This document shows positions 1,366 through 22,845 of a stretch of 22,915 nucleotides of DNA, one piece after another. This DNA is from a virus: positions 1-22,915 of IMG/VR virus record IMGVR_UViG_3300025860_000092, one strand, 5' to 3'. A model generated the notes under the pieces. It searched no databases, was not told the origin of the DNA, and saw nothing but the letters and a program-made list of their open reading frames with translations. Numbering within the stretch: position 1 is the first letter of the stretch; each line of letters opens with the position of its first letter. Position numbers and translations under genes: made by a program.

Positions 1366-2585
1366 TAATAAAGTTATTCTGTGATGACAGATCATACTAT
1401 AACAATTACTACAAGTATATAAATCTAAATTATATTAAAAATAATTTTAGTAATATATATAAGTTGTTCCTTATAGTACACCAGTACTATGAGGCTAATC
1501 AAAGTCATGCACTAAGTAAGTTAGACTTTGAGTTAGCATACCATAGTAGTTACTTGTTAGAAGATAGTGAACGTAATGAACTATCAGATACGCTTGATCG
1601 TATACTAGCTCTTGATGTTAATGTTGACAACACAGTAGGTTACCTCAATGAACACAAGAAACGCTGCGTTGCAGGAGAGCTAGCTAAGGTAGCACTTGAT
1701 GTTGAAGATGGTAGTGCTGAACTATCTGATCTACTAGATAAGGTTAAAGAATTTGAAGCTGATGACATAACAGAAGATGCTGCTAACACAGTTAACATGG
1801 ACTTGAGTGAGCTATATGACACAGCAATAGCTACGCCTGGTCTACGTTGGAGACTTGATTGGCTTAACAAATCACTAGGCTCTCTACGTAAGGGTGACTT
1901 TGGTTTCATCTTTGCTAGACCTGAGACAGGTAAGACTACTTTCCTAGCTAGTGAGATGACACACATGGTAACACAAACAGATGGTGACATCCTATGGTTT
2001 AACAACGAAGAACAAGGTAAGAAGGTAGCAATCAGATGTTACCAAGCATTGTTTGGTGTAGACAGTGAGACTTTATTTAGTAACGTAGATAGATACAAAG
2101 AAGAGTATCATGATCTCATTGGTAGTAGGATTAAGATATATGATTATGAAGACTCAAGTAGCTACAAGCGGATTGAGTCTATCATTAAAGAAGTTAATCC
2201 CTCATTGATTATCTTTGATCAGATAGATAAGATAAAAGGATTTAAGAATGAACGCTATGACCTTGAACTTAAAAAGATATACCAATGGGCAAGAGAAATA
2301 GCTAAGAGTTATGCCCCTGTCATTGCCGTATCCCAAGCAGGCGGCACTGCCGAAGGCAAGGTGTGGTTAACAATGGATGATGTAGACAGCAGCAAGACTG
2401 CAAAGCAAGGTGAAGCTGACTGGATACTAGGCATAGGAAAAGAACAAGACAACACAAGTAACATGCGATTCTTAAACATCAGTAAAAATAAATTAATTGG
2501 TGATAAAGATACACTGCCTGACTTGCGACATGGCAACAAACAGTGTATGATTAAACCTAACATAGCGAGGTATGAAGACTTATGA
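1350..2585 (+). CDS. Replicative DNA helicase, DnaB/T7 gp4 C-terminal type
   Basis: The protein has 411 residues. It is predicted to be a ring-shaped, NTP-driven 5'-3' helicase that unwinds DNA ahead of the polymerase. Residues 1-160 are a helical N-terminal region that probably docks the separate primase. The RecA-type core carries Walker A at 189-196 (ARPETGKT), a catalytic Glu at about 220 (WFNNEEQG), Walker B at 286-293 (LIIFDQID, Asp290), a VSQA motif near 328 and a basic SKNK element near 379. The first position of the Walker A consensus is Ala rather than Gly, while the GKT core is intact. The gene overlaps the primase by 16 bases, and its stop overlaps the polymerase start as ATGA. 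Separate primase and helicase genes distinguish this phage from T7 itself. Confidence 0.88.
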   Translation: MVEELIIKLFCDDRSYYNNYYKYINLNYIKNNFSNIYKLFLIVHQYYEANQSHALSKLDFELAYHSSYLLEDSERNELSDTLDRILALDVNVDNTVGYLNEHKKRCVAGELAKVALDVEDGSAELSDLLDKVKEFEADDITEDAANTVNMDLSELYDTAIATPGLRWRLDWLNKSLGSLRKGDFGFIFARPETGKTTFLASEMTHMVTQTDGDILWFNNEEQGKKVAIRCYQALFGVDSETLFSNVDRYKEEYHDLIGSRIKIYDYEDSSSYKRIESIIKEVNPSLIIFDQIDKIKGFKNERYDLELKKIYQWAREIAKSYAPVIAVSQAGGTAEGKVWLTMDDVDSSKTAKQGEADWILGIGKEQDNTSNMRFLNISKNKLIGDKDTLPDLRHGNKQCMIKPNIARYEDL

Positions 2586-3751
2586 GTTACTTAGTATTAG
2601 ACGTAGAAACAACCATTAGTAATAATGGTAATCCCTTTGATAAGACTAACAAGTTATGTATGGTTGGTATGTTATCACAAGATGAAGTTAGTATAGAAGA
2701 CATAGAGTTCTCCGTTGAACCCTACCGAGAATCACTTGATCGTATCCAATTAGCCGTGGATAAGTGCGATGTGTTGGTAGGGTTTAATATTAAGTTTGAT
2801 TTACACTGGCTTAAAAGATATGGTATTACCTTTGATAAGAAAAGAATATGGGACTGTCAGTTAGTACAGTATGTATTATCTAACCAAGAAAATTCTTATC
2901 CATCATTAGATGCAACATCAGAGTACTATGGTCTAGGTAATAAACTAGATGAAGTTAAAGAAAACTATTGGAAGAATGGTATTGATACTACTGAGGTACC
3001 TGAAGAGATACTGTCTGAGTATCTACAACGAGACTTAGAACTAACTGAGAAAGTTATGGTCAAGCAAATGGAAGAGTTGTCTAAGCGACCTCATCTCCGT
3101 AAGCTCATAGCTCTACACAACCAAGACTTACTAGTGCTGCAAGCTATGGAATACAATGGTATGCAGTATGATTATGATAAGTCTAAAGTATTAGGAGATG
3201 AACTTGAAGAACAGATATCCAAACTTAACAAGAAGCTGCATGACTTTCATGCTTACGATGATTTTAATCCCAATTCTGGCGAGCATCTTTCTGCTTTTCT
3301 TTATGGTGGGATCATTAAGGAGCGTTTTCAACGCCCCATTGGACATTACAAGACTGGCGTACGCACAGGCGAAGTTAAGTATAGGTGGGAAGAGCAAGAC
3401 AAAGAGTTTCCACGAAGAATAAATCCTTTGCCTAAGACTGAGCTTAAGAAAGAAGGGTTCTTCAGTACGAATGAAGAGACCTTACGTAAGCTAACACCAC
3501 GTAGTGATGAAGGTAAAGAGATACTAAGAATTATATTGGCACGTGCTACCATGCAGAAACGTATGACTACATACTATCATGGTGTGCCACAACTAATTGA
3601 TGAGATGCACTGGGCTAATGGAATTATACATGGTCAACTCAATCAATGTAGGACTAAGACAGGTAGGTTAAGTAGTAGTAAGCCTAACCTACAGAACTTT
3701 GATGGAGAGATTAAGACTCTCTTCCCAACTAGATATGGAGAACAGATATGA
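2582..3751 (+). CDS. Family A DNA polymerase, N-terminal part (3'-5' exonuclease and start of polymerase domain)
   Basis: The protein has 389 residues. The 3'-5' proofreading domain looks complete: Exo I is LVLDVETT (Asp7, Glu9), Exo II is VGFNIKFDLHWL with its Asp, and Exo III is EYLQRDLELTEK in the Tyr-x-x-x-Asp form. The chain continues through a thumb-like region to the conserved TGRLSSSKPNLQNF segment that precedes motif A in PolA enzymes, and ends at LFPTRYGEQI. Motifs A, B and C are absent and are encoded by the gene at 3974-4684. The stop overlaps the start of the intervening 74-residue gene as ATGA, so translation passes directly on. Alone it could be only an exonuclease. With the C-terminal part it would make a roughly 625-residue polymerase, somewhat shorter than T7's 704. 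Confidence 0.88.
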   Translation: MSYLVLDVETTISNNGNPFDKTNKLCMVGMLSQDEVSIEDIEFSVEPYRESLDRIQLAVDKCDVLVGFNIKFDLHWLKRYGITFDKKRIWDCQLVQYVLSNQENSYPSLDATSEYYGLGNKLDEVKENYWKNGIDTTEVPEEILSEYLQRDLELTEKVMVKQMEELSKRPHLRKLIALHNQDLLVLQAMEYNGMQYDYDKSKVLGDELEEQISKLNKKLHDFHAYDDFNPNSGEHLSAFLYGGIIKERFQRPIGHYKTGVRTGEVKYRWEEQDKEFPRRINPLPKTELKKEGFFSTNEETLRKLTPRSDEGKEILRIILARATMQKRMTTYYHGVPQLIDEMHWANGIIHGQLNQCRTKTGRLSSSKPNLQNFDGEIKTLFPTRYGEQI

Positions 3752-3972
3752 ATGAAGAAGATAACTTTGAATTTAAAGAAAGACAACTAGAACGACAAGC
3801 ATTAGAGCAAGCAGCTGACTTAAGTATTTGTATAGATTTTAGTGAGGTGTTACATAAACATAGTGTAGAGTATGTACTAAATAGAATGTTACCTAGTGCT
3901 AAACAAGAACTAAAACGTAAGATAATAAATGATTATCATAAACGATTAATAGACTCTAACGTAGGATTATAA
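3748..3972 (+). CDS. 74-residue protein of unknown function lodged between the two polymerase parts
   Basis: The ATG at 3748 overlaps the stop of the polymerase N-part (ATGA), and the TAA at 3970-3972 is one base before the ATG of the C-part. The product is charged and probably all helical (MNEEDNFEFKERQLERQALE... then SAKQELKRKIINDYHKRL), with no HNH, GIY-YIG, LAGLIDADG or intein motif. It uses a reading frame different from both polymerase parts, which share one frame. It is therefore a separate small gene rather than a domain of the polymerase. It could bridge or regulate the two halves, or be what is left of a mobile insertion. The sequence alone does not tell which. Confidence 0.7.
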   Translation: MNEEDNFEFKERQLERQALEQAADLSICIDFSEVLHKHSVEYVLNRMLPSAKQELKRKIINDYHKRLIDSNVGL

Positions 3973-3973
3973 T

Positions 3974-4684
3974 ATGTTACTTAATGCAGATGCAAAACAA
4001 CTTGAATGGATATGTGCTACCTATCTATCCCAAGATAAGGTAGCTATAGATGAGATCAACAACCAAGTTGATCAACATGCTGATAACCAAGCAAGGTTTG
4101 GATTGCCCTCACGATTGATTGCTAAGACTTTTGTCTTTAGATTAATCTATGGTGGTAGTGCTTTTAGTTATGCTAATGATCCTAACTTTAAAGACATAGG
4201 TAATGAAACCTTTTGGCAAGGTGTGATTGATCAGTTCTATGATAAGTATACAGGACTTAAGGCATGGCATGATAAGATAATGTTTGATGTAAAACAAACT
4301 AATCAGTTAGTGATGCCAACAGGCAGAACATATGAATACCAACCTGAGGTTAATAGTCAAGGTAATCTTAAGTATCCTCGCACACGAATCCTTAACTATC
4401 CAGTGCAAGGACTCGGTGCTGACCTAATGACTATAGCTCGTGTTAGTTTGTATAACAAGATAGTAAACATGGAAGGTGTTAAGTTAATCAATACAGTACA
4501 TGATTCTATCATGCTTGACTTTGATGAAAAGGTATGTTATACTAATAGTATAGTTCCAATTGTTAAAGAATCATTTGAGAATGTACCAGCAAACTTTAAA
4601 CATTTGTTTGGTAAAGATTTCAACCTCCCAGTTAGGGTTGATATACAAGTAGGTAATAGCTGGGGTAACGTAGAAGATGTATAA
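3974..4684 (+). CDS. Family A DNA polymerase, C-terminal catalytic part
   Basis: The protein has 236 residues. It begins MLLNADAKQLEW, which is motif A with the metal-binding Asp at residue 6, so the start codon sits only five codons before a catalytic residue. Motif B (O-helix) is RLIAKTFVFRLIYGG, with Arg47, Lys51, Tyr59 and Gly60. NYPVQGLGADL lies at 141-151, and motif C is TVHDSIML with His176 and Asp177. All expected palm and finger residues are therefore present, and nothing seems lost at the break. The gene is in the same frame as the N-terminal part, 225 bases downstream of its last sense codon, but that stretch has many in-frame stops, so readthrough is excluded. The two chains must associate, or the RNA must be spliced, to give working polymerase. 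Confidence 0.88.
   Translation: MLLNADAKQLEWICATYLSQDKVAIDEINNQVDQHADNQARFGLPSRLIAKTFVFRLIYGGSAFSYANDPNFKDIGNETFWQGVIDQFYDKYTGLKAWHDKIMFDVKQTNQLVMPTGRTYEYQPEVNSQGNLKYPRTRILNYPVQGLGADLMTIARVSLYNKIVNMEGVKLINTVHDSIMLDFDEKVCYTNSIVPIVKESFENVPANFKHLFGKDFNLPVRVDIQVGNSWGNVEDV
4515..4543 (+). promoter_or_regulatory. Sigma70-like extended -10 promoter inside the polymerase C-part (copy 3)
   Basis: TTGACT at 4515-4520, a 17-base spacer and TATACT at 4538-4543 with TG at 4535-4536 (TGTTATACT). The -10 region is identical to that of copy 1 and is followed by AATAGT. It lies in codons for the segment just after motif C and points at the SSB-like gene at 4702, giving a leader of about 150 bases. It would allow the single-stranded-DNA-binding protein and downstream nucleases to be made independently of the polymerase. 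Confidence 0.6.
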
Positions 4685-4701
4685 TTTTATAGGAGATTTA
4701 T

Positions 4702-5259
4702 ATGCAAGTTAATGTTGTAGATGTATCAAGCTTAAACACACATGCTGCTAAGAATGGTAGACAATACCAATCATTAGAAATCATGTACAAGAACGATCAA
4801 GGGCAAGCACAGTCTAAAAAGCTGATGTCATTCGCTAACCCTGCCGTGTTTAAAGCTGCTCAAGAATGGCAAAAAGGTGATGTCGTACATGTTAGCACTG
4901 AGAAAGATGCTAATGGTTATTGGCAATGGACAGCAGTTGGTGATGCAGATACTACTACAGACAATCGTGGTGGTGATACTGCAGCAGCTCCTCAAGCTAA
5001 GGCAAGTGCTCCTACAACTCGTGTAACAGGTAGTAACTACGAGACTAAGGATGAACGTGCTGCAAGGCAAGTAATGATAGTCCGTCAATCATCTATCTCT
5101 AATGCAGTAGCAACACTAGCTTTAGCAGGTAGCAATACTACACAAGGTAATCCAAGTGAAGTCATTGCTCTAGCTAAACAGTATGAAGCTTATGTGTTAG
5201 GGCAAGCTGCCACTACAGCAGCTGAAGACTTTTCTGCAATTGAGGACATACCATTCTAG
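4702..5259 (+). CDS. Single-stranded DNA-binding protein-like
   Basis: The protein has 185 residues and is preceded by TAGGAG at 4690-4695. Residues 1-80 are predicted to be beta-rich (MQVNVVDVSSL..., GDVVHVSTEKDANGYWQWTAVG), consistent with an OB fold and aromatic residues that can stack on bases. A Thr/Ala-rich flexible linker follows at about 82-112. The end is a mixed helix plus an acidic tail (AEDFSAIEDIPF), closely resembling the acidic Asp-Ile-Pro-Phe tail by which bacterial SSBs recruit partners. Its position between the polymerase and the exonuclease fits a role in coating unwound strands. The assignment rests on tail, length and context, since no invariant active-site motif exists for this family. 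Confidence 0.7.
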   Translation: MQVNVVDVSSLNTHAAKNGRQYQSLEIMYKNDQGQAQSKKLMSFANPAVFKAAQEWQKGDVVHVSTEKDANGYWQWTAVGDADTTTDNRGGDTAAAPQAKASAPTTRVTGSNYETKDERAARQVMIVRQSSISNAVATLALAGSNTTQGNPSEVIALAKQYEAYVLGQAATTAAEDFSAIEDIPF

Positions 5260-5267
5260 GAGAAACT

Positions 5268-5579
5268 ATGGAAGATAGAGATAGAGCAAGTTTATTAGGA
5301 GCGATAGCAGTAGCTATTGCTCTACTACTCTTAGTGTACTTAGTACAAAAAGAAAGAGTTTATGATATAGTAGGAGATGAAGTAGTAACCATTGTAGCAC
5401 CTGCTATACCTGAACCTTATGTAGTAGATTCATATGAATCATCAGTAATAGCAGTACAATCTTGGGATCATTTAGAAGCAGACAATGTTCCTTTACTTGA
5501 GATTGAACCTGTTGACGATGTTGTTTATGATTACATTTTAGATGAACAACTAACAGAGCTACCACCTTTACAAGGATAA
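5268..5579 (+). CDS. Membrane-anchored protein of unknown function (103 aa)
   Basis: It starts at ATG 5268 after TAGGAG (5257-5262), where the stop of the SSB-like gene forms part of the ribosome site. Residues 8-25 are strongly hydrophobic (LLGAIAVAIALLLLVYLV), flanked by charged residues (EDRDR before, QKERVYD after), as expected for one membrane anchor. The remaining 75 residues are acidic and Val/Glu/Asp-rich with no cysteine and no recognised motif. Lying between SSB and exonuclease genes, it could tether replication or recombination proteins to the membrane, but that is speculation. It does not look like a holin with several spans or a lysin. The next gene starts three bases after its stop. 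Confidence 0.6.
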   Translation: MEDRDRASLLGAIAVAIALLLLVYLVQKERVYDIVGDEVVTIVAPAIPEPYVVDSYESSVIAVQSWDHLEADNVPLLEIEPVDDVVYDYILDEQLTELPPLQG

Positions 5580-5581
5580 AC

Positions 5582-6280
5582 ATGATTGCATTAATTGACC
5601 ATGACTTAGTTGTCTTTAGATGTGCTGCAAGTGCAGAACAAGATGACTTTGGTATTGCTAAGTATAGAGCAGATGCGTTGTTAGATGAACTACTTACTAA
5701 GACAGGATGTACAGAATATCGTGCATTCTTGTCAGGTAAGTCTAACTTTCGTAAGACAATCTATCCTGAATATAAAGCTAACAGAACTGCCCCTAAACCA
5801 ATCCATTTAGAAGCATTGAGAGACTATGCACTAGAAGAGATGGGAGCTGAATTAGCACCTGAAGGAATAGAAGCTGATGATGCTATGGGTATCAATCAAA
5901 CAGATGATACTGTGATTGTATCCTTAGATAAAGATATGCTCATGATCCCTGGTAAACATTTCTCATGGGAAATTAAAGGTAAGGGTTGGGTTAAGCCTGA
6001 CAAATGGACTGACCAGACTGAGCTCGGAGGACTACGACTGTTCTTTGAGCAATGTCTTAAAGGAGATACTGCAGATAACATTAAAGGTATTGAAAAGGTT
6101 GGTGATAAAACAGCAAAGAAAATGTTAGCTGACTGCACTACAGAGCAAGAGATGTTTAATACTGTACGTGCTGCCTATGGCAATGATGAAGAGTTTATTA
6201 TGAATGCAAGTTGTCTATGGATTCAGCAACATGAAGATGATGTTTGGAGAGATAGATTTAATGCCTATATTCAAAAGTAA
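5582..6280 (+). CDS. 5'-3' exonuclease, FEN/T7 gp6 type
   Basis: The protein has 232 residues. It is predicted to be a metal-dependent 5' nuclease that removes RNA primers and resects DNA ends, and it may also help degrade host DNA. It has ALIDHDL at the start (Asp6, Asp8), FRKTIYPEYKANR near 57-68 for binding the 5' strand, EADDAMG at 97-103, SLDKDM at 114-119, and CLKGDTADNIKGIEKVGDKT at about 158-177. That last stretch combines the final metal-binding Asp residues with a helix-hairpin-helix DNA-binding turn. All acidic positions expected of the family are present. It overlaps the downstream endonuclease gene by 20 bases. The family is clear, but whether it acts mainly as a flap nuclease or an exonuclease is not decided by sequence. 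Confidence 0.87.
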   Translation: MIALIDHDLVVFRCAASAEQDDFGIAKYRADALLDELLTKTGCTEYRAFLSGKSNFRKTIYPEYKANRTAPKPIHLEALRDYALEEMGAELAPEGIEADDAMGINQTDDTVIVSLDKDMLMIPGKHFSWEIKGKGWVKPDKWTDQTELGGLRLFFEQCLKGDTADNIKGIEKVGDKTAKKMLADCTTEQEMFNTVRAAYGNDEEFIMNASCLWIQQHEDDVWRDRFNAYIQK

Positions 6281-6647
6281 GTTAGAAGTAAAAGCTTGGG
6301 CAGAACTTAAGAAACATTTTCCAAGTGTCAAGTATGAACCAGATGTGATTGAATACACGCAGCCAGAAAAGATAAGGAAATATAATCCTGATTTTAAGAT
6401 GGCTAAGAATGTATACATAGAAGCTAAGGGTAAGCTTGACTTAGCTACACGTCAAAAGATGGTATGGTTTAAAGAGTGTAATCCAGGTGTCATAATTATA
6501 TTTTTATTTATGAATCCTGATAATAAGATAACTAAACGAAGTAAGACATCGTATAGTAATTGGGCTGAGAAAGAAGGTTTTCTATGGTTAGACTTTAGAA
6601 AAGATTGGATCAAAGCTTATAAGCAAATAGTTAAGGAGCATACGTAA
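6261..6647 (+). CDS. Holliday junction resolvase, T7 endonuclease I type
   Basis: The protein has 128 residues from ATG 6261 (MPIFKSKLEV), with GGAGA at 6246-6250 upstream. A longer reading from 6204 lies wholly inside the exonuclease gene and has no family features. The PD-(D/E)xK nuclease core is intact: Glu9, Asp44 in YNPDF, and Glu54 and Lys56 in YIEAKG. The spacings of 35, 10 and 2 residues equal those between T7 Glu20, Asp55, Glu65 and Lys67. The enzyme is expected to act as a domain-swapped dimer cutting four-way and branched DNA, to resolve recombination intermediates before packaging and to help break down host DNA. Its stop overlaps the phosphoesterase start as TAATG. Confidence 0.87.
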   Translation: MPIFKSKLEVKAWAELKKHFPSVKYEPDVIEYTQPEKIRKYNPDFKMAKNVYIEAKGKLDLATRQKMVWFKECNPGVIIIFLFMNPDNKITKRSKTSYSNWAEKEGFLWLDFRKDWIKAYKQIVKEHT

Positions 6648-7414
6648 TGAAGAAACATTTAGTAATTGGTGACACCCAAGTAAAGCCAGGCATTAGTCTG
6701 GCTTACTTGTCTTGGATAGGTAGATATATTGTTGACAAACAACCAGAAGTTATAGTAATGATTGGTGACTTTGCTGATATGCCTAGCTTATCAAGCTATG
6801 ATGTAGGTAAGAAATCGTTTGAAGGTAGGACCTATAAGGCTGATATACGTGCTGTACATAAAGGTATGGAAGCACTACTCGCTCCTATGAATGCCTTGAA
6901 CAACAGACTAGCTAAAGCTAAGAAGAAGTTATACAAGCCTAAGATGGTACTGACTATGGGTAACCATGAGCAGCGTATCAACACTGCAATTGAGTATGAT
7001 AGAAAGTTAGATGGTCTTATATCTTTTGATGATCTACAGTACGAAGAAGCAGGATGGGAAGTAGTACCATTTCTTGAGGTTAAAGAAATAGATGGTGTTG
7101 CCTACTCGCACTACTTTGCTAGTGGCGTTATGGGTAGACCTGTAACATCAGCTAATGCTTTGCTTACTAAGAAACATATGAGCTGCGTTGCAGGACATCA
7201 ACAAGGACATTCAATTGCCTATGGGCAGAATGCGACAGGTAAACAGATGACTGCAATCATTAGTGGTAGTTGTTATTTACATGATGAGAACTATCTATCA
7301 CATCAGACTAACCAACATTGGAGAGGATTGTATATGTTACACAATGTAGACAATGGTTCATTTGATGAATGTGCTATACCATTGCACTACCTAAAAAGAA
7401 AGTACAAGAAATAG
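6647..7414 (+). CDS. Calcineurin-like metallophosphoesterase
   Basis: The protein has 255 residues. Metal-binding motifs appear in order: GDTQ (Asp9), GDFAD (Asp41), GNHE (Asn106, His107), a lone His at 155 (YSHYF) and GHQQGH (His184, with His188 beyond). This is the dinuclear phosphoesterase set. The first motif normally reads Asp-x-His, but here the third position is Gln11, so one ligand of the first metal is changed. From memory, phage members of this group often read this way, so the enzyme may still be active. The substrate is unknown: phage relatives have been proposed to act on nucleotides or nucleic acid ends. The gene lies directly after the resolvase and ends just before a strong promoter. 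Confidence 0.82.
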   Translation: MKKHLVIGDTQVKPGISLAYLSWIGRYIVDKQPEVIVMIGDFADMPSLSSYDVGKKSFEGRTYKADIRAVHKGMEALLAPMNALNNRLAKAKKKLYKPKMVLTMGNHEQRINTAIEYDRKLDGLISFDDLQYEEAGWEVVPFLEVKEIDGVAYSHYFASGVMGRPVTSANALLTKKHMSCVAGHQQGHSIAYGQNATGKQMTAIISGSCYLHDENYLSHQTNQHWRGLYMLHNVDNGSFDECAIPLHYLKRKYKK

Positions 7415-7415
7415 C

Positions 7416-7444
7416 TTGACTTTTGTGTATTTATATGCTATAAT
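7416..7444 (+). promoter_or_regulatory. Strong sigma70-like extended -10 promoter in the intergenic gap (copy 4)
   Basis: TTGACT at 7416-7421, exactly 17 bases, then a perfect TATAAT at 7439-7444 with TG at 7436-7437. It fills the only sizeable gap in the left block (7415-7450), which is itself strong evidence. Transcription should begin near 7450-7452, on top of the DUF3310 start codon at 7451. It would drive the small-gene cluster, the ribonucleotide reductase and the SLOG gene using host RNA polymerase. Confidence 0.78.
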
Positions 7445-7450
7445 ATTAAT

Positions 7451-7690
7451 ATGAAGAACAGTACAATAAGAGCTAATATAGCTAAAGAAAAACAAGTAGG
7501 TGGTAATCATTATAAACAATATGTGATTCAACCTATAGAGTTTATAACAAAAAACAATATCCCTTTTATTGAGGGTAATGTGATCAAGTATGTTCTCCGT
7601 TGGAGAGATAAGAATGGTATACAAGATCTTGATAAAGCAATTCATTACTTAGAGTTGTTAAAGGATATAAAAAGAAATGGTAAAAATTAA
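7451..7690 (+). CDS. DUF3310 small phage protein
   Basis: The protein has 79 residues and contains the hallmark KQVGGNHYKQ near residue 15, then IQPIEFI and a helix with KYVLRWRDKNGIQDLDKAIHYLELL, the core of DUF3310. Members are widespread in phages and often adjoin nucleotide metabolism genes. They have been suggested to be nucleotide kinase-like or nucleotide-handling proteins, without firm proof. Its ATG coincides with the predicted transcription start of the promoter just upstream, and no ribosome binding site precedes it. Translation may therefore be leaderless or come from a longer upstream transcript. No better internal ATG exists before the conserved segment. It overlaps the next small gene by 14 bases. 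Confidence 0.82.
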   Translation: MKNSTIRANIAKEKQVGGNHYKQYVIQPIEFITKNNIPFIEGNVIKYVLRWRDKNGIQDLDKAIHYLELLKDIKRNGKN

Positions 7691-7823
7691 AGAAAAAAGA
7701 GTTTGTAATAAGTGTGGTGAGGTTGCCAAGATATGGGATGCTAAGAAGTGGTGGTGTTCTATAGATACATTAGAAGGTGAGTTCAACATGGTTGGTTACT
7801 GTCCACAGGAGAAAAAGAAATGA
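7677..7823 (+). CDS. 48-residue Cys-rich (zinc-ribbon-like) protein
   Basis: ATG 7677, preceded by AAGGA at 7661-7665, opens 48 codons ending TGA 7821-7823, which overlaps the next gene as ATGA. The protein reads MVKIKEKRVCNKCGEVAKIW, then has Cys27 in a KKWWC stretch and Cys42 in VGYCP. Cys10, Cys13, Cys27 and Cys42 could bind one zinc ion. Without this gene there would be an unexplained 129-base hole in a cluster where every other junction is tight, which supports it as real. Possible roles include DNA, RNA or host-protein binding, with nothing to choose between them. Confidence 0.72.
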   Translation: MVKIKEKRVCNKCGEVAKIWDAKKWWCSIDTLEGEFNMVGYCPQEKKK

Positions 7824-8038
7824 TAGCAGAATATCTATTACTAGTAAGTTTATTAGATCCATTTGGTGCATCGTATGAACAATACGTTGGTAATTTTACA
7901 TCATGTGATAAAGCACATATGTATTACATAGTACACTTTGATCCTCTAGTTACTAGTGATGGTTATCGTTGTCTTAATGAAGAGTATGTTCATCTACCTG
8001 CAGACTGGGATACAACAAGAAAGGAAATACATGAGTAA
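7820..8038 (+). CDS. Hypothetical protein with hydrophobic N-terminus (72 aa)
   Basis: It starts as ATGA on the stop of the Cys-rich gene. The first 17 residues (MIAEYLLLVSLLDPFGA) are hydrophobic but have no positive charge, so they make a poor signal peptide and may pack inside the fold instead. The rest holds two Cys (FTSCDKA and YRCLNEEY) and is rich in aromatic residues. The pattern, with Cys, Tyr and a final helix, could suit a small exported disulfide protein, but I do not recognise a family. The next gene starts inside its last codons (8031), so the two are co-translated. Confidence 0.6.
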   Translation: MIAEYLLLVSLLDPFGASYEQYVGNFTSCDKAHMYYIVHFDPLVTSDGYRCLNEEYVHLPADWDTTRKEIHE

Positions 8039-8234
8039 TAGTATTAATGATTATGAAATCACTGGGGCAATCATGCGTAGCAAAGTGCCCTCAAAGAAAT
8101 ACAAAGATAACTATGATGCAATCTTTGGATCACTAACCTGTAATCACTGTGATTTTAAACAGGATAATAAAAACAACGTACTTTGTCAATCATGTGGAAA
8201 AACTATTGATAACAAAGTGGAAGGTCGGTCATAA
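8031..8234 (+). CDS. Small zinc-ribbon protein (67 aa)
   Basis: The start at ATG 8031 has AAGGA at 8021-8025 upstream. A longer reading from 7956 overlaps the whole end of the preceding gene and is rejected. The first 40 residues are polar (MSNSINDYEITGAIMRSKVP...). The C-terminal half carries TCNHCDF and LCQSCGK, two CxxC knuckles about 13 residues apart, the signature of a zinc ribbon. Such ribbons often bind nucleic acid or act as adaptors. The tail ends KVEGRS. This is the third Cys-rich small protein in the left block. Its target is unknown. Confidence 0.65.
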   Translation: MSNSINDYEITGAIMRSKVPSKKYKDNYDAIFGSLTCNHCDFKQDNKNNVLCQSCGKTIDNKVEGRS

Positions 8235-8238
8235 TAAC

Positions 8239-8430
8239 ATGCTTACGTTTAAGGAAGTTTGTGAAGAATTATCTAAACTAGACGAGACTACATTACTGGA
8301 AGTGCTTGACATCACATCAGATGAACTCGTTAACAAGTTTCAAGATAAGATAGAGGAAGATTTAGAATCATTAGCTATTGATTTAGAAAAAGATTCTGTA
8401 TTAGATTTATTTAACCAAGATATAGATTAG
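8239..8430 (+). CDS. Conserved-looking small acidic phage protein (63 aa)
   Basis: It starts at ATG 8239, four bases after the preceding stop. The longer reading from 8149 is a shadow of the zinc-ribbon gene. The product (MLTFKEVCEELSKLDETTLL, then EVLDITSDELVNKFQDKIEE) is acidic and mostly helical. From memory this pattern, a helix with a Leu/Asp-Glu turn followed by Ser-Asp-Glu-Leu-Val and Asp-Lys-Ile-Glu, recurs in short proteins of many unrelated phages, but it has no assigned function. No strong ribosome site is visible, so coupling to the preceding gene is likely. The next gene is the ribonucleotide reductase, 12 bases on. Confidence 0.68.
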   Translation: MLTFKEVCEELSKLDETTLLEVLDITSDELVNKFQDKIEEDLESLAIDLEKDSVLDLFNQDID

Positions 8431-8442
8431 GAGATAAGAAAC

Positions 8443-10302
8443 ATGGATGTATACCAATCGGTAATTGCGAGCTCACGCTATGCAAGATATATACCAGAAC
8501 TCAAAAGACGAGAAACCTGGGCAGAAACAGTAGATAGAATGGTAAACTACTTACAATCTAAAAATGCAGGACTAGATAAAGAATTTAAAGAAATAAGAGA
8601 GGCTGTGTATAACCTTGAGATCATGCCATCAATGAGACTTATGATGTCTGCTGGTGAGGCATGTGATAGAGATAACATTGCAGCATATAACTGTTCATAC
8701 CTAGCCATCAATAACAAGCGTGCCTTTAGTGAAGCTTTGTACATATTGATGAATGGTACTGGTGTAGGATTCAGCTGTGAACGACAAGAAATTGCCAAGC
8801 TACCAGAGATCCCAGCTGAACTATCAGTTGTTGATGATGTCATCGTAGTTGGTGATAGTAAGTTAGGATGGGCGAAAGCCTTTAAGAAGTTACTGTCGTC
8901 CCTATGGGAAGGAGATATACCTAGTGTAGACTACTCACAAGTACGTCCTGCTGGTGCACGTCTCAAGACATTTGGTGGTAGAGCTAGTGGTCCTGAGCCT
9001 CTTAAAAGATTGTTTGACTTTGTTATAGATACATTTAAACATGCTAAAGGACGTAAGTTAAACTCAATAGAGGTCCATGATATAGTCTGTATGGTTGGAG
9101 AGATAGTAGTTGTTGGTGGTGTTAGAAGATCAGCCCTTATCTCCCTATCAAATCTTACAGATAAACGCATGAGAGAGGCTAAAATGGGTGCATGGTACAA
9201 TGATTTTGCATACCGAGGGTTAGCTAATAACTCAGTAGCTTACACAGAGAAGCCTGATATGGAAACATTCATGGAAGAATGGGTATCTCTTGTTAAGTCT
9301 AAGTCAGGAGAACGTGGTATCTTTAATAGAGTTGCTGCACAAGTACAAGCAGCCAAGCAGGGTAGAGATCCTAATCTAAATTATGGTACTAACCCTTGTT
9401 CAGAGATCATTCTCCGTGATAAACAGTTCTGTAACCTCACAGAGGTAGTAGTACGTAATGGTGATACAGAAGAAACCTTAGCTAACAAAGTGCGACTAGC
9501 TACTATACTAGGTACATTACAGAGTAATCTAACTAACTTTCAGTTCTTATCAGCAGAATGGGTTAAGAATACGTCAGAAGAAAGACTACTGGGTGTTTCA
9601 TTAACAGGTATCATGGATGCTAAAATAACAGCTAACCCTGATCCTAAACTACTAGAGAGGTTAAAAGATCATGCTAGAAGAACCAATCACAAATACGCAG
9701 ACAAGCTTGACATCCCACGATCAAGAAGTATTACGTGTGTTAAACCTTCTGGGACTGTGTCTCAGCTTGTTAATAGTGCTAGCGGCATACATGCTCGTCA
9801 TAACGACTACTATATAAGAACCATCCGTATGGATAACAAAGATCCTATTACTCAGTTCTTAACTGATAAAGGGGTACAAGTAGAGCCAGAACAGTTTAGA
9901 CCAGATAGTACATCAGTGTTTAGCTTCCCTATGAAAGCACCTAAAGGAGCTATTACTAGGAATGACATGACAGCTATTGAGCAGTTAGAGAATTGGTTAG
10001 TATACCAACGTCACTGGTGTGAACATAAACCTTCTGTAACGATCTCCGTTAAAGATGATGAGTGGATGGAAGTAGGTACTTGGGTATGGAAATACTTTGA
10101 TGAGATTAGTGGTATATCTTTCTTACCTCATAGTGATCATAGCTATGTGCAAGCACCTTATACCGATTGCAGCAAAGAAGAGTATGAAGCTTTGAAAAAG
10201 ATTACTCCACAAGAAATTGATTGGACATCTTTCTTAGAAGAAGATGACTTTACTGAAGGCAGCCAAACATTAGCCTGTACAGGTGGGAGTTGTGAAATAT
10301 GA
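8443..10302 (+). CDS. nrdJ: Adenosylcobalamin-dependent (class II) ribonucleotide reductase, monomeric RTPR type
   Basis: The protein has 619 residues with TAGGAG at 8429-8434. It reduces ribonucleoside triphosphates to deoxy forms, supplying dNTPs for phage DNA, and needs vitamin B12 from the host but no oxygen and no second subunit. Visible catalytic parts are Cys84 (AAYNCSYLA) and Cys330 (QFCNLTEV) as the redox pair, Asn317-Pro-Cys319-Ser-Glu321 with Cys319 as the thiyl radical residue, and a C-terminal shuttle pair Cys612/Cys617 (CTGGSC). Spacing Cys319-Cys330 (11) and Cys612-Cys617 (5) equals that of Lactobacillus leichmannii RTPR (408-419, 731-736). It is about 120 residues shorter than that 739-residue enzyme, so peripheral parts are trimmed. 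Its stop overlaps the next gene as ATGA. Confidence 0.93.
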   Translation: MDVYQSVIASSRYARYIPELKRRETWAETVDRMVNYLQSKNAGLDKEFKEIREAVYNLEIMPSMRLMMSAGEACDRDNIAAYNCSYLAINNKRAFSEALYILMNGTGVGFSCERQEIAKLPEIPAELSVVDDVIVVGDSKLGWAKAFKKLLSSLWEGDIPSVDYSQVRPAGARLKTFGGRASGPEPLKRLFDFVIDTFKHAKGRKLNSIEVHDIVCMVGEIVVVGGVRRSALISLSNLTDKRMREAKMGAWYNDFAYRGLANNSVAYTEKPDMETFMEEWVSLVKSKSGERGIFNRVAAQVQAAKQGRDPNLNYGTNPCSEIILRDKQFCNLTEVVVRNGDTEETLANKVRLATILGTLQSNLTNFQFLSAEWVKNTSEERLLGVSLTGIMDAKITANPDPKLLERLKDHARRTNHKYADKLDIPRSRSITCVKPSGTVSQLVNSASGIHARHNDYYIRTIRMDNKDPITQFLTDKGVQVEPEQFRPDSTSVFSFPMKAPKGAITRNDMTAIEQLENWLVYQRHWCEHKPSVTISVKDDEWMEVGTWVWKYFDEISGISFLPHSDHSYVQAPYTDCSKEEYEALKKITPQEIDWTSFLEEDDFTEGSQTLACTGGSCEI

Positions 10303-10436
10303 GATTAACTGTTTATCCAATACTAGGAGTACACCTCGGGTTTGAGTTCACCGATGGTGTAGTTAATAATGAAGCTATCAGCTATATGTTAATAGATTTG
10401 TTTATAGTTCGTTTTCAATTTGCGTGGTATCAATAA
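10299..10436 (+). CDS. 45-residue hypothetical protein between RNR and SLOG genes
   Basis: The ATG at 10299 overlaps the reductase stop (ATGA), and the TAA at 10434-10436 overlaps the next ATG (TAATG), so it fills the whole gap. The product begins MRLTVYPILGVHLGFEFTDG and ends LFIVRFQFAWYQ. It looks like four short beta strands around a Gly/Asp turn, with many aromatic residues. There is no cysteine and no membrane helix. Perfect coupling on both sides is the main evidence that it is translated. The role is unknown. Position suggests a partner of the reductase or simply a co-regulated gene. Confidence 0.68.
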   Translation: MRLTVYPILGVHLGFEFTDGVVNNEAISYMLIDLFIVRFQFAWYQ

Positions 10437-10825
10437 TGAGATTAGCTATTATAGGTAGTAGAAGTATTACAGACGATGCTTTAATACTGAAGTCAGTAGA
10501 TAAAGTAGTTAAGGAATTAAATCCGAGTTGTGTATTGATTGGAGATGCTAAAGGTATTGATCCTACAGTAGCTCACTATGCACAGTCTCATGATATAGAT
10601 ATAATCAGGTTCCTTCCATATCATTTGTTAGATCCCACATCTAACTTTGATAGTAAGTATTTCTTTGTTCGCACGAAGCAACTTATAAACAATGCAGATG
10701 CTTTACTAGCAATATGGAATACACACAGTAAGGGTACAGAGTATGCTATCAAGTATGCTCAGAAGCTAGAGATTCCAGTGAAGGTAGTTAAAGTACCTCC
10801 TAAGACTCAGTTTGTCTACTCTTAA
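10436..10825 (+). CDS. SLOG-domain protein (DUF2493/YspA-like)
   Basis: The protein has 129 residues from ATG 10436 (MRLAIIGSRSITDD). The upstream in-frame ATG at 10424 lies inside the previous gene and adds only four residues. It forms a Rossmann-like SLOG fold: the first strand and loop are IIGSRS (5-10), the second glycine loop is LIGDAKGID (34-42), and NADALLAIWNTHSKGTEYAI (about 88-107) carries the Ser/Gly-rich loop and final helix that bind a nucleotide-like ligand in this superfamily. Relatives include DprA and the LOG and TIR-adjacent SLOG sensors. In phages the DUF2493 version is common and its ligand is not settled. It is the last gene of the left block and adjoins the convergent junction hairpin. 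Confidence 0.8.
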   Translation: MRLAIIGSRSITDDALILKSVDKVVKELNPSCVLIGDAKGIDPTVAHYAQSHDIDIIRFLPYHLLDPTSNFDSKYFFVRTKQLINNADALLAIWNTHSKGTEYAIKYAQKLEIPVKVVKVPPKTQFVYS

Positions 10826-10842
10826 CTGTCCAAAGGTTGATA

Positions 10843-10864
10843 GGGGGGAACGTCAGTTCCTTCC
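10843..10864. terminator. Hairpin at the convergent junction, probable terminator
   Basis: GGGGGGAAC at 10843-10851 and GTTCCTTCC at 10856-10864 flank a GTCA loop. They form a 9-base stem containing two G-U pairs on the + transcript. The sequence lies between the stop of the SLOG gene (10825) and the end of the - strand operon (10871). On the + strand a T-rich run (CATTTTTTATTTT) begins about eight bases after the stem, further than in an ideal intrinsic terminator. On the - strand no T-run follows. It may separate the two converging transcripts. Confidence 0.45.
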
Positions 10865-10870
10865 ATTCAA

Positions 10871-11554
10871 TCATTTTTTATTTTCCTTATTCCTTAATTT
10901 CTGTAATAAAATACCAATCCCTGCTAATTGAGCAGCTGATTTATTGTCTCTCATTAAAGTTTTAAACTCTTCATAAGACATATTTTTTAATTGTTCTGGT
11001 GTTTTCTTTACTAATTCTCCATATTTTTTTCCAAGATACCCTTGTTTAGCTGCATCTATAAAACTACTATACTTAACTTGCATATCACCATGTACTTTAG
11101 AAGGATTATCTAGTGATTGCTCCTTAATTCCATAAGATGATTCAGAACCAAAAGTTTTACCCGCAGCTGCTTTAATTTCTTCAGTAGTATAACCATCTTT
11201 ATTTAAGTTAGTTAGCTCTGTTTTATAAACTTTAAGAGCTTGCATATCAAAATTAGTATTAAATTCTTCTAAGTTCTTTACCTGTTGATCAGTTTTAGGT
11301 TCTAAAGTATTATAGTTCTTAATCCAAATATCACGATTTTTACCCTGTTCAGTATTATAAAGTGTTGCCATAGTATCAGCATCTAATACTTGAGTATTAT
11401 CAATAGGTTGCTCTACAGCAACTTGTGGTTGTGATTCATTTCTAAGTTCTTCTTGTTTAGCAATAAATTTTTGAGGATTTAAATAATCTTTAACTCCTTT
11501 CATACTATTGTTAAAAGATTCTTGAACTACTTTTAGATCTATAGCTAGACTCAT
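10871..11554 (-). CDS. Last gene of the virion operon, hypothetical (227 aa)
   Basis: The start (MSLAIDLKVVQE) overlaps the stop of the 579-residue gene by four bases. The protein is polar, Lys/Gln/Glu-rich and mostly helical, with a possible disordered stretch near residues 35-55 (ESQPQVAVEQPIDNTQVL). Residues 110-190 (YTTEEIKAAAGKTFGSESSY..., FIDAAKQGYLGKKYGELVKK) look like a small folded domain. No Cys or membrane segment is seen. Its position at the end of the internal-protein run suggests a virion or ejection component, but an accessory protein cannot be ruled out. The stop lies seven bases before the junction hairpin. I do not recognise a family. Confidence 0.65.
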   Translation of the reverse strand: MSLAIDLKVVQESFNNSMKGVKDYLNPQKFIAKQEELRNESQPQVAVEQPIDNTQVLDADTMATLYNTEQGKNRDIWIKNYNTLEPKTDQQVKNLEEFNTNFDMQALKVYKTELTNLNKDGYTTEEIKAAAGKTFGSESSYGIKEQSLDNPSKVHGDMQVKYSSFIDAAKQGYLGKKYGELVKKTPEQLKNMSYEEFKTLMRDNKSAAQLAGIGILLQKLRNKENKK

Positions 11555-13290
11555 TGTGTCATTAACCTTAAAATTTCCATAGCTGTTTCTTTAGTTGCTT
11601 TTACTCCATTAATTTTAGCATTTAACCTAGCAACTGTATTAAGATTTTTAGCTACTCGTTTAGAAGCAACAGAAGCATTAGAATAAAATACACCTTCATC
11701 AGTCATTTCTATTTGATTAGGCATAACATTATTTGTTATTAAATCAGCTTTAACACCTCCTAAGAAAATAGCATTCTCATTTTTAGCATCATCTAAGAAA
11801 GTTTCAGAGTTTTCTTGCATGTAATTAAACGTAGTATCAGACATATTAGTTACTGTATTTAAAAAATTACCATTATATTCATATCTATTTTTAGGATTGT
11901 CTGCATGATATTCAGCAGTTTGAAATATGTTATTATAATAACCTAACATCTCTGGAGATACTTTATTTCCTTTAATCATTCCTTCAAACACAGGTTGTAG
12001 TTCAGTAATTCCTTTTTGAATCATCTCTCCATTCTTAGTATACTGAGCAAAAGAAGGATTATCTATTGCAAACTTTTTACCTTGAATAATAGCTAGATTA
12101 ATAATAGATTGCTGTCTTGCTTGTTTTTCTCCAGGAGCAAAGGAAATACCTGCTGAAGTAGATATAAACTCAAAACCTTTAATTTCTAAGTTCATTAACT
12201 CAAGAGACTCTCTGTCTTTACCTGCAAGTAATCTACCAAAGTTTTGTTGTGCTGCAATCGTAGCATTCGTATTTTCTAGTCTTTCTTTAAAAGTTTTACC
12301 TGATAAAGCATCTGAAGACTGAGAAGATAAACTATTTAAATGTTCTTTCATTAACTCATAAGCTTGTTTATTTTCATCAGTTGGAGGTAATGCTGCAATA
12401 ACTCCTAAATATTTTCTAGCTTCTAAAATAGTAATATTCTTTTCTCTATCTGCTGCCTTACCATCAAGTTCTCCAGATAGTAAACGATCTTCAATGTTAT
12501 TAAGTTCATTAGTAATATTAAGCATCTCGTTACTAGCTACTACGATTGTACCACCTTTAAGATTAATATCTTCTTGTAAAGCTGCAGCAGTCTGTTCATT
12601 CCTTAATGATCCATCCTCAATCATTTGTTTTACTGCAGCCCTTTCTTTATCTGCATTTTTATATTTAAGATATAATTCTTGTTTATCATCATTATCCATA
12701 AACATGGGTGTTTCATTTTTAGTTCTAAGATAGTCATCTATAATTTTTAGTCTTTCTGTTTCCGCTGCTATTTGTCGTTCATATAAAAGATTATCTTGCT
12801 TCATTAAATTAGCAATACCTCTATTACCTAGGGCTTGATTAACTCCTTTAGCAATTTCATCTGCATAAGCAGGATTTCTATTAGCTAGAGCTTGAGTATC
12901 TTTTAAAACTCTACGCTCATATTCATAAGGAGACATAACATTTTGTTCTTTTGCTTTATTATATAATGTAGTTATTTGATTAAGCTCATTCATAACTGCT
13001 TCATTATCTGGGTCATCTGCTAATTGTTGTTGTAAACTTTGTTGGTCTTGTGCTATTTGATTTAAATTAGTAGGACTCATGCTTTCATAATCATCTGCTA
13101 ATTTTTGTCCTAACTCTTGAGCTTCTCCCAGAGTTTGCTGTTTATCAAATTGTACTGCTCCTTTTATAGCAGTATCAGCTACATCAAGTATACCTGCAAA
13201 ACTATTATACTTAGCAGGCATAGCCTGTGGTGTTGCATAGGTAAGCCCTGGTTGATTTTGTTCTATTTTAGTTGTATCAAATGTAGCCAT
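11551..13290 (-). CDS. Large helical virion protein, possible gp15-like internal protein
   Basis: The protein has 579 residues from MATFDTTKIEQ, with AAGGAA shortly upstream inside the last codons of the 1,824-residue gene. The sequence is almost wholly helical and Gln/Asn/Glu-rich, with coiled-coil-like stretches near residues 75-115 (NLNQIAQDQQSLQQQLADDP) and no transmembrane segments. Its size, composition and position beside the huge ejection-type protein and a gp14-like protein resemble T7 gp15 (about 750 residues), which helps form the periplasmic conduit during DNA ejection. There is no invariant motif to prove this. In T7 gp15 precedes gp16, whereas here the similar-sized gene follows the large one. 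It is confidently coding, with moderate functional inference. Confidence 0.72.
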   Translation of the reverse strand: MATFDTTKIEQNQPGLTYATPQAMPAKYNSFAGILDVADTAIKGAVQFDKQQTLGEAQELGQKLADDYESMSPTNLNQIAQDQQSLQQQLADDPDNEAVMNELNQITTLYNKAKEQNVMSPYEYERRVLKDTQALANRNPAYADEIAKGVNQALGNRGIANLMKQDNLLYERQIAAETERLKIIDDYLRTKNETPMFMDNDDKQELYLKYKNADKERAAVKQMIEDGSLRNEQTAAALQEDINLKGGTIVVASNEMLNITNELNNIEDRLLSGELDGKAADREKNITILEARKYLGVIAALPPTDENKQAYELMKEHLNSLSSQSSDALSGKTFKERLENTNATIAAQQNFGRLLAGKDRESLELMNLEIKGFEFISTSAGISFAPGEKQARQQSIINLAIIQGKKFAIDNPSFAQYTKNGEMIQKGITELQPVFEGMIKGNKVSPEMLGYYNNIFQTAEYHADNPKNRYEYNGNFLNTVTNMSDTTFNYMQENSETFLDDAKNENAIFLGGVKADLITNNVMPNQIEMTDEGVFYSNASVASKRVAKNLNTVARLNAKINGVKATKETAMEILRLMTQ

Positions 13291-13292
13291 TT

Positions 13293-16200
13293 TTAATTTC
13301 CTTGTTTATAAGCATCGTTAGCATCTAACATCCAAGCTTCCATTTCATTTAATTCCTCAATTGAGTCAGGGAATTTACGTGATAAGGTTGCTTTAAGAGT
13401 TCTAATTTGTTCTATAGTACTGTCACTATAATAAGGGGCATCATATTTAAAGTCTTTTTTAAATTCTCTATAGAATTTCTCAGCAAAAGAAACATCTTGT
13501 TGAGCAATCATAGTTAATGCTTGATCCATAAACTCATTATGTTCTAATGTATTAGTAACTAATGTTCCTTTATTTAATTTAAATTTCCAAACAACTAAAA
13601 ATTCTTTAACCTCGTCTACTTCCATTGGTTTATTACCTCTGGATTTGCGATAAATTTGAACAGCTCGTTTAGCTTCAGCTCTAATATCTGCTTTTTTATC
13701 AATGTTTTTACCTGTTTGATCCCAAAGCATTGTTGTCCTAGAATCAGGAGCACTTAATAAAGCCTTCCAAATTTGTTCACCTGAGGTAGTTTCTAATCCT
13801 GTATCAGCTCCCGTTTTAGTTATATCAGCAGTCCACTCATCTGTTAAAGCACCAAAGATTAATTTTTCTGCAGCACTAAGGAAAGGAATCATATCTGTAA
13901 TAACAGCCTTAGTCATTCTCATTTTTTCTGCAGAAGAAAAAGCATCAGAATTATTACTATATACATCAAATAATAACCTAATTGCTCCATTGTCACCAAA
14001 GATTTTTTTATAAAAAGCTACAGAAGCACCCATTTCTTTTGTATCTATTGTATCTCCTTTAGCACTAGCCAGCATCCTAAGAAAATTAGATATAGGACCT
14101 AATGGAGAATTACCATGAACACTTAATACCTCTCCAGGAACAACAAAAGTTTCCTTACCTAAGTACTTACCATAAGCATTAGCAATTTGATATGAAAGAT
14201 TTAGTTTACCAAAGTACTCACCCCAAGTTCTCATGTCAGGATCTTCATGTTCCATTAAATAACTACGTAAATACTTATCTACATTATATAAACTAGAACC
14301 ATATATTGCAAAATCAGCAGCCAATAAAGCAGCTCTTTGTTTTCCAGTAAAAGGAGTTGCTTGAGCATTCCAAGTTCTTTCAGACATCTTTTGTGAAAAA
14401 GAGGTAAATAAACCTAAGTACCTTAAAGGTAAGTTGCTTTGCCAACCAAATGCCATAGAGTTATTCATACCACCTGCAAGTCTATTTGCATCTAAAGCTA
14501 TCTGTGATAAAGCTTCAGGTGTTTTCCAACTTCTCTTAGGATTCATTTGTTTAAATTGCTCTAAAGCAACCATCATAAATAAATCTCTGTTAATTGTTTC
14601 ACCAAATTCAAATCCTATTTCACCAGCTTTTTGTGCAGTTTTTTCTAAGTACATTAAAGGGTTTAAATAAGATGCTGTATTAACACCACGTAAACCAGTA
14701 AGATTAGTGCCAGAGGTAGCACCTAATTTAGGCAAGGTATTTATACCAATTCCTTGATTGTATACATGATCTCTTACATTATTTAAACCTGATTTTTCCA
14801 TAGCATTAATAATAAGAGCATACTCTTCATTTGTATACTTAGTAAATTTTCCTGTTGTAACATCAATGCCTAAGCCTGAATCTTTTATTGCTTTTTCACT
14901 AAGGTCCCAATAGCTATCTATATGTTTATTTAAGTCACTAGTACCCTTTTTCATATTACGTTGTAATGAAATTCTTTTTGATGTTATAGTCAACGCATGA
15001 GTATAAAGTCTAGCCATTTGTATAGGATTACCATTAGAAACAACAGCAATAGGTCCTAAAGAAGCTAATGATTGTAGAATAAACTGTTTAACAGGTCGCA
15101 TTATAATCCATAGGGAAGTAATAGGTCTTAAGGGAGCTCCTGCTACAGAACCTGGATGACGTTGAGCATATCTACCTTTACCAATAAAGTATTTACCTGC
15201 CTTAGTTTGACCAGCTGTTGCATCAGCAATTTCAGCTAATGTCCCCCCTAGCCAACCTACAATTCCAGCTATATCTCCTCTAGCTTTACCCATTTCATAA
15301 ATATAGATTTTATCCCATATTGCTAGAGCATGATTATAAACATCACTATGCCCTGCTACCTCTTGTATTTGATCTCTACTAGGAAATCTATCTTCAATCC
15401 TACCTAAACCTTTTTGAGATACATTATCTTTAGGTGCTATTTTTATATAAGGATTATTATTCATAAAAGCATTAACAAACTCTGCTTTTAATTGTCCTGT
15501 ACCTACTATATCCATTACAGCAGCTCCTGTAGTCTGAGCTGTTTGAACTAATGTAGAATAAGGATCACTTTCTAATTCATATTTTAAACCATTACGTAAG
15601 GACTCATTTGTTTTTAACTGATGTCTTTGTATTTCCATATCAGCCATTTCACCTAAGTCTTTATTATTCCGTCTTTTTAATTCTGATACTAAGTCAACCT
15701 CATAAAAATAATTAGCATTATCTAATGTATTCATATAAGCTATAGCATCTTTTCGTGATTGAAACATAGCTATAGTTTCACTAAATTCAGAGAGGTCTCG
15801 GATAGCTTTTGCTCTATCATTAGAGTAATCTATTTGTCTACCATTTTGTTTAAATCTAACAGGATACTGTCTTACTACAATACCTTCATTATGTATTTTA
15901 GGAACATAGCCTTTAACTTGAGGACTTAAATCTCTAGGTAATGGTCCTGCTTTAACTGTACCAAATACACCAAAGTTATAATAGTTTCCATCAGGAGCTA
16001 AGAACTTTTTAGAAAGTTGATGAATTTGTTGTTGAGGCATCCCTGTACCATCTTGTACATAATGAGTAGCCTCTTTATTTAGATTATTTGATTTATGTAA
16101 TATTGGTTTATTACTATTAAAATCCCATACTTCATAGTTTGCAACAATACGTTGAGCATTGTCAGGAACAAAATTAATAAAGTCATCTGCAGGTCTAAAT

Positions 16201-18767: not shown

Positions 18768-18775
18768 TTATATCC

Positions 18776-19399: not shown

Positions 19400-19400
19400 T

Positions 19401-19706
19401 TTAAATCTCCAATACTGTTAAATAATTTAATATACCATCTTCTGTTAGAACAATACCTCCAGGTACTTCTTTTGCTCCAAACACAATGTTAAACTTTCTT
19501 TCTTTCTTTGAAGCACAGATACCATAAACCTTCTTAATACCCTTGTCCCTTAACTTTTGTTTTGCTATTTCTAAACCTTTTAAATATCTTTTAAACTTAG
19601 TATGACTCCAAGAAAGACACTCTATGTGCATTTCCCAGTTATCTAGTGCTTCATTCCAAGTGATTCCAATGAATCCATTATCTGGTTCTTCGTACAGTAT
19701 TTCCAT
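19401..19706 (-). CDS. Small GNAT-like / T7 gp13-like virion-module protein (101 aa)
   Basis: The protein has 101 residues (MEILYEEPDNGFIGITWNEA) and its stop lies two bases from the next gene. Strand-helix order resembles half of an acetyltransferase-like fold: a strand pair ending HIECLSW, a long helix (YLKGLEIAKQKLRDKG), a strand (KVYGICAS), a short helix (KERKFNIVFGAKEV) and a final strand. A similar short protein often lies between the nozzle and gp14-type genes of T7-like phages, where gp13 has been noted as GNAT-like and is needed for virion morphogenesis. The acetyl-CoA-binding RxxGxG/A loop is not evident, so catalysis is doubtful. The call rests on position and pattern. Confidence 0.55.
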   Translation of the reverse strand: MEILYEEPDNGFIGITWNEALDNWEMHIECLSWSHTKFKRYLKGLEIAKQKLRDKGIKKVYGICASKKERKFNIVFGAKEVPGGIVLTEDGILNYLTVLEI

Positions 19707-19707
19707 A

Positions 19708-21954: not shown

Positions 21955-21955
21955 T

Positions 21956-22234: not shown

Positions 22235-22248
22235 GTTTATCCTTATTT

Positions 22249-22816: not shown

Positions 22817-22845
22817 AGACATCCCCTTTAATAAAGGGAGCTGTA

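What the first reader, a model, noticed from the sequence alone, without database searches (positions are those of the whole stretch)
7416..7480. Consensus promoter placed so that DUF3310 mRNA may have no leader
The -10 ends at 7444 and the ATG is at 7451, where transcription should begin. There is no ribosome binding site before the ATG. Either the gene is translated from a leaderless transcript, or it is translated only from upstream readthrough while this promoter serves the downstream genes.
Basis: partly seen in the sequence, partly recalled or inferred. Interest (0 to 1): 0.55.

Follow-up and report, generated by a model that had tools for sequence, protein, structure and literature searches.

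The report
Phage promoter abutting a leaderless gene
In this marine virus of bacteria a strong, conserved host-type promoter sits so close to a small gene that its messenger RNA probably begins at the gene's own start codon, and relatives use the same layout at other genes.

Summary
TTGACT (7416-7421), a 17-nt spacer with TG, TATAAT (7439-7444), then six bases and the DUF3310 ATG at 7451; no Shine-Dalgarno (SD). It is the only 11-of-12 promoter match in 3000-22915. The window belongs with Methylophilales phages MEP401/MEP402. The leaderless reading is best supported. In 83 loci the -10-to-ATG gap is 6 in 43 and 5 in 3, while the spacer interior and the protein N-terminus vary. A second gene of these phages (68 aa, next to portal) has gap 6 in 69 of 79 loci. 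Of 37 distinct family promoters, 16 carry ATA and 14 ATG at positions 7-9 after the -10, so the expected +1 falls on this A. Lambda cI and PY54 cro, known leaderless genes, have gap 6. It is not universal: gap 3 (7 loci) and gap 1 (5) put the ATG upstream of the expected +1, so those relatives need readthrough mRNA; L057 has an SD leader. Unselected phage promoters also peak at gap 6. No transcript was mapped. Leaderless phage mRNAs are known; this is a new, unusually systematic member.

The parts
7416..7421 (+). -35 element TTGACT
   Evidence: TTGAC invariant in 17 of 17 representatives
7422..7438 (+). 17-nt spacer; TG of the extended -10 at 7436-7437
   Evidence: spacer 17 in all 20 promoter clusters
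7439..7444 (+). -10 element TATAAT
7445..7450 (+). six bases ATTAAT between -10 and start codon (discriminator)
   Evidence: gap 6 in 43 of 83 loci
7451..7453 (+). ATG start codon of DUF3310; its A is the inferred +1
   Evidence: inferred and calibrators; not mapped
7451..7690 (+). DUF3310 protein, 79 aa
   Evidence: PF11753 E 5.4e-13; several PHROG matches annotated nucleotide kinase
6647..7414 (+). upstream metallo-phosphoesterase gene; readthrough from here would carry DUF3310 on a longer mRNA
   Evidence: phrog_221 E 1.9e-50; PF00149 just under its cut-off
7677..10825 (+). downstream genes of the inferred transcript, including class II ribonucleotide reductase 8443-10302
   Evidence: SD-like pairing before most of them

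Best explanation
The element is a strong extended -10 sigma-70 promoter for host RNA polymerase, inside a co-directional operon. Transcription most likely starts at the A of the DUF3310 ATG (7451), giving an mRNA with a 5'-terminal AUG and no leader, read by leaderless initiation for DUF3310; the downstream genes on the same RNA use their own SD sites. The promoter occupies the place where an SD would be, so the two cannot coexist. Shown: the sequence layout, its conservation, the lack of SD, and repetition at other genes. Inferred: the actual start of transcription, ribosome use, and timing. Readthrough from upstream promoters probably also carries the gene.
For: Gap 6 in 43 and gap 5 in 3 of 83 loci; 12 of 17 distinct representatives have gap 6, with 8, 9, 16, 17, 19, 26 or 29 residues between Met and the GGxHY core, all in frame. 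MEP401 and MEP402 each have four such intergenic promoters; two of the four abut an ATG at gap 6, the others lead to a short SD leader or a long leader. The 68-aa gene: gap 6 in 69 of 79 loci, 7 of 10 clusters. Two further genes with gap 6 in relatives (L475; L477 and L481). Positions 7-9 after the -10 are ATA in 16 and ATG in 14 of 37 family promoters, A at position 7 in 33. L057 keeps the promoter with ATA and has GGAGAG plus an ATG at gap 19; 11 loci with another small gene inserted give DUF3310 a GGAG-type SD. Lambda cI and PY54 cro show gap 6 (PY54 mapping in passages of PMC4488713). No T7-type RNA polymerase in MEP401, MEP402 or MW202697, with T7 as positive control, which fits use of host polymerase. 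The window's 70-nt mRNA 5' end folds weakly (-3.9 kcal/mol).
Against: No transcript or protein was measured. Gap 3 (7 loci) and gap 1 (5 loci) keep the promoter but place the ATG upstream of the expected +1; in the tree of 30 phosphoesterases each is one clade, gap 3 nested inside gap 6. The 68-aa gene in 10 of 79 loci has its promoter 36-85 nt upstream by my scan (the 36 is a contig cut inside the promoter) and, in the sequences I read, no SD, so these genes can apparently be translated without SD and without being leaderless. The gap-6 loci are partly conserved by descent.
Confidence: 0.72

Rival explanations
1. DUF3310 is translated from longer readthrough mRNA by SD-independent, AU-rich initiation; the promoter serves only the downstream genes and the short interval reflects genome compaction.
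For: Gap-1 and gap-3 relatives (12 of 83 loci) seem to require it; 10 of 79 loci of the 68-aa gene lack gap 6 and, where read, an SD; upstream genes run in the same direction and no plus-strand terminator was predicted between 6705 and the promoter.
Against: It does not predict the sharp preference for gap 6, nor the same gap at unrelated genes, nor that DUF3310 has an SD-like upstream sequence wherever it is not next to the promoter (read by eye).
Confidence: 0.2
2. Transcription starts a few bases off (7450-7455): a 1-2 nt leader, or an RNA lacking the AUG.
For: Start-site choice is known to be flexible by a few bases (recalled); gap 5 in L007-L009 and a gap-9 ATG in MW202697 (read).
Against: A is at position 7 in 33 of 37 family promoters.
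Confidence: 0.06
3. The promoter-like string is not used as a promoter and is conserved for another reason, for example as a protein-binding site.
For: Promoter matches of 9 of 12 or better are not enriched in the window as a class.
Against: Both hexamers, the 17-nt spacing and the TG are kept while inner spacer positions vary; such elements sit at operon heads and gene junctions in MEP401/402.
Confidence: 0.02

Closest known systems
Lambda cI mRNA from PRM (leaderless)
   Same: -10-like hexamer six bases before the ATG; leaderless status recalled, and stated in passages of PMC4488713
   Different: Repressor of a temperate phage; here a consensus promoter at a nucleotide-metabolism gene
PY54 cro and cI leaderless mRNAs (PMC4488713, passages read)
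   Same: mRNA mapped to the AUG; the cro -10-like hexamer is six bases before the ATG
   Different: Repressor genes of a plasmid prophage; PY54 cI shows no -10-like hexamer at gap 6
TA-led (leaderless) genes of bacteria, Zheng et al. 2011 (PMC3160421, passages read)
   Same: TANNNT about 12 bp upstream of the start, counted from its first T
   Different: Survey of cellular genomes; it reports leaderless genes in 9 of 71 beta-proteobacterial genomes
Deinococcus-Thermus -10-adjacent ORFs (PMC12340547, abstract and passages read)
   Same: -10 beside the ORF drives leaderless mRNA; too short a distance disturbs expression
   Different: Cellular genes in a different phylum

Membership tests
Leaderless mRNA gene | -10 placed so that +1 is the start codon (gap about 6) | tested here: met
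   calibrators lambda cI and PY54 cro
Leaderless mRNA gene | 5' end of mRNA at AUG | not testable with these tools
   needs transcript mapping
Leaderless mRNA gene | No SD upstream | tested here: met
   +1.4 kcal/mol
Leaderless mRNA gene | Translation from the leaderless RNA | not testable with these tools
   needs ribosome profiling, toeprint or reporter
Leaderless mRNA gene | Interval conserved in relatives | tested here: inconclusive
   gap 6 or 5 in 46 of 83 loci, gap 3 or 1 in 12, gap 19 or more in 12, 13 without detected promoter
Extended -10 sigma-70 promoter | -35, 17-nt spacer, TGn, TATAAT | tested here: met
DUF3310 (PF11753) | Pfam match over the curated cut-off | tested here: met
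   49.2 bits against 24
Methylophilales phage group of MEP401/402 (Zobellviridae in the records) | DNA similarity and shared gene order | tested here: met
   77-78% identity over 83-85% of 5401 bases; annotation; family-level markers were not tested

The most novel reading that the evidence does not exclude
This phage group uses one standard promoter whose transcript begins AUA or AUG; a single A-to-G change at +3 turns a leadered promoter into a leaderless gene, and the group uses this at several genes. More widely, phages with strong sigma-70 promoters use leaderless starts far more often than their annotation suggests.
Probability: 0.4. Interest if true: 0.65.

Novelty: new member of a known kind. 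Interest (0 to 1): 0.5.

Why it matters
Leaderless mRNAs in proteobacterial phages are known to me mostly from repressor genes of temperate phages (recalled). Here a phage group without a detected T7-type polymerase, in an otherwise SD-rich genome, appears to use them at a nucleotide-metabolism gene and at a gene beside the capsid genes. The L057, gap-3 and long-leader relatives are natural variants of one promoter, which make leaderless, SD-led and SD-less initiation directly comparable. The gap-6 peak in unselected phage promoters suggests a wider, testable pattern.

Tried and rejected
A downstream start codon: no in-frame ATG, GTG or TTG lies between 7451 and the GGxHY core in the window, so rejected. 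Structured RNA: no Rfam family reaches its gathering score in the window; folds of four stretches are not clearly better than shuffles (z 0.06 to -1.09). Chance promoter: rejected on conservation. Strict leaderless rule for the whole family: rejected because of gap-1 and gap-3 clades. The first search for a phage RNA polymerase rang in no control genome; repeated with T7 as control. The bacterial comparison is mostly Clostridia assemblies and not host-matched. No OM43 host genome was examined. Literature searches listed no paper on leaderless genes in this phage group; most subscription papers are not held.

Full report
What is there. The window has TTGACT at 7416-7421, a 17-nt spacer ending in TGC, TATAAT at 7439-7444, six bases, and ATG at 7451. 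It is the only site in 3000-22915 that matches 11 of 12 consensus bases, and it has the TG. The gene is a DUF3310 protein whose PHROG matches include several annotated nucleotide kinase. The upstream metallo-phosphoesterase gene stops at 7414. The window is close to Methylophilales phages MEP401 and MEP402, recorded as Zobellviridae.

No ribosome binding site, in a genome that uses them. Pairing of the 20 bases before each start with the anti-SD has a median of -6.05 kcal/mol in MEP401 (66 genes, 47 at or below -4), -6.05 in MEP402 (68, 52) and -6.2 in the window (30, 26); DUF3310 in the window scores +1.4. Eleven, ten and three genes respectively are weaker than -2, so SD-less starts are a minority but exist.

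The interval in relatives. I took 80 DUF3310 loci, the best of 383 confirmed ones, plus the window and the two isolates. Of these 83, 70 have a good promoter upstream: gap 6 in 43, gap 5 in 3, gap 3 in 7, gap 1 in 5, gap 19 in 1, gap 91-110 in 11. Of the 13 others, one (L064) is a contig cut inside the promoter that still shows gap 6, and 12 have no promoter and show an SD-like string by eye. After removing near copies, 17 representatives have gap 6 (12), 5 (1), 3 (2) and 1 (2). Several inner spacer positions vary freely, and the number of residues before the GGxHY core takes seven values among gap-6 representatives, all in frame, so there was time for length change.

The exceptions. With gap 1 or 3 the ATG would lie before the usual +1, so a leaderless AUG RNA from this promoter is not expected. 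In a tree of 30 distinct phosphoesterase proteins (56 of the 83 loci had enough of the gene), gap 3 is one clade inside gap 6, gap 1 is a separate deep clade, and L057 (gap 19, with GGAGAG) is single. In 11 loci another small gene sits between promoter and DUF3310; its own ATG lies at gap 3, and DUF3310 then has GGAGG or a similar string.

The same layout elsewhere. MEP401 and MEP402 each have four intergenic promoters of this type: one before a small gene with a short SD leader, one before DUF3310 (gap 6), one at the head of the minus-strand operon with a long leader, and one before a 68-aa gene next to portal (gap 6). For that gene, 79 of 80 retrieved loci were scored (L552 is truncated and was dropped): gap 6 in 69, and no other gap under 36. 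The other ten carry the promoter farther upstream with an AU-rich leader; the ones I read have no SD. Two more genes show gap 6 in relatives (L475; L477 and L481). The promoter pattern was found in 29 of 37 related records searched, out of the 80 loci at hand.

Where transcription should start. In 37 distinct promoters of the family, positions 7-9 after the -10 are ATA in 16 and ATG in 14; position 7 is A in 33, position 9 is A or G in 36. Leadered promoters thus mostly have ATA where leaderless ones have ATG, and the expected +1 is the same A. Lambda cI and PY54 cro, leaderless by experiment (PY54 in passages of PMC4488713; lambda recalled and cited there), also have six bases between the -10-like hexamer and ATG; PY54 cI does not.

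A wider pattern. Counting ATGs that open an ORF of 50 codons or more, gaps 5, 6, 7 gave 3, 10, 2 in 113 distinct sites (mean elsewhere 1.03) and 0, 9, 3 in 132 sites (mean 1.26); bacterial contigs gave 0, 1, 2 in 128 sites (mean 1.19). Without contigs of this family the first sample gives 2, 5, 2 in 106 sites (Poisson P for gap 6 0.0038) and the second is unchanged (P 6.9e-6). Of 21 unrelated ORFs at gap 5-7, none has an SD-led in-frame start within the first 40 codons; 20 were scanned (L294 left out) and 10 match a PHROG family, among them terminase small subunit, exonucleases and a methyltransferase. Gap 31 reaches 5 and 8 in the two samples, within the range expected for SD leaders, so gap 6 is one of two peaks. 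The bacterial set is mostly Clostridia, so the phage-host contrast is only a lead.

Mechanism and judgement. MEP401, MEP402 and MW202697 have no match to the T7-type RNA polymerase family while T7 does, so host polymerase is the likely enzyme. The best reading is a leaderless DUF3310 mRNA that also serves the downstream nucleotide-metabolism genes, with readthrough as a second source. Leaderless phage mRNAs are known; a passage in PMC5312081 even calls phage transcripts often leaderless. What I did not find described, in the searches named above, is the repeated use in one phage group, the ATA/ATG alternation at +1 to +3, and the natural variants.

Noticed in passing
window 4515-4543: Second promoter-like element (TTGACT, 17, TATACT, TG) inside the polymerase ORF 3974-4684, 158 bases before the next gene; similar elements followed by AATAGTATAG or the like occur in several related records. 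It may be conserved only through the protein.
   Followed up: partly
window 2582-4684: DNA polymerase A appears split over two ORFs (2582-3751, 3974-4684) with a 74-aa ORF between; MEP401 and MEP402 are annotated the same way.
   Followed up: no
L084 29573-29779 (-), L085 30853-31059 (-): 68-aa gene between portal and scaffold/capsid with the same promoter and gap 6; function unknown (phrog_8956, E 0.003).
   Followed up: yes
L477, L481: Gene with a GRYRT motif (131 aa in L481, phrog_8035) also starts at gap 6 in relatives.
   Followed up: partly
L040, L049, L059, L063: A small gene, by its residues probably a membrane protein, is inserted between promoter and DUF3310, with its own ATG three bases after the -10.
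   Followed up: partly
L140, L149: Other phage contigs with an ATG one base after a consensus -10, like the gap-1 relatives; unexplained.
   Followed up: no
window 19401-19706 (-): Another start without SD (+1.0 kcal/mol), with counterparts in MEP401 and MEP402 that also lack one, and no promoter beside it.
   Followed up: no
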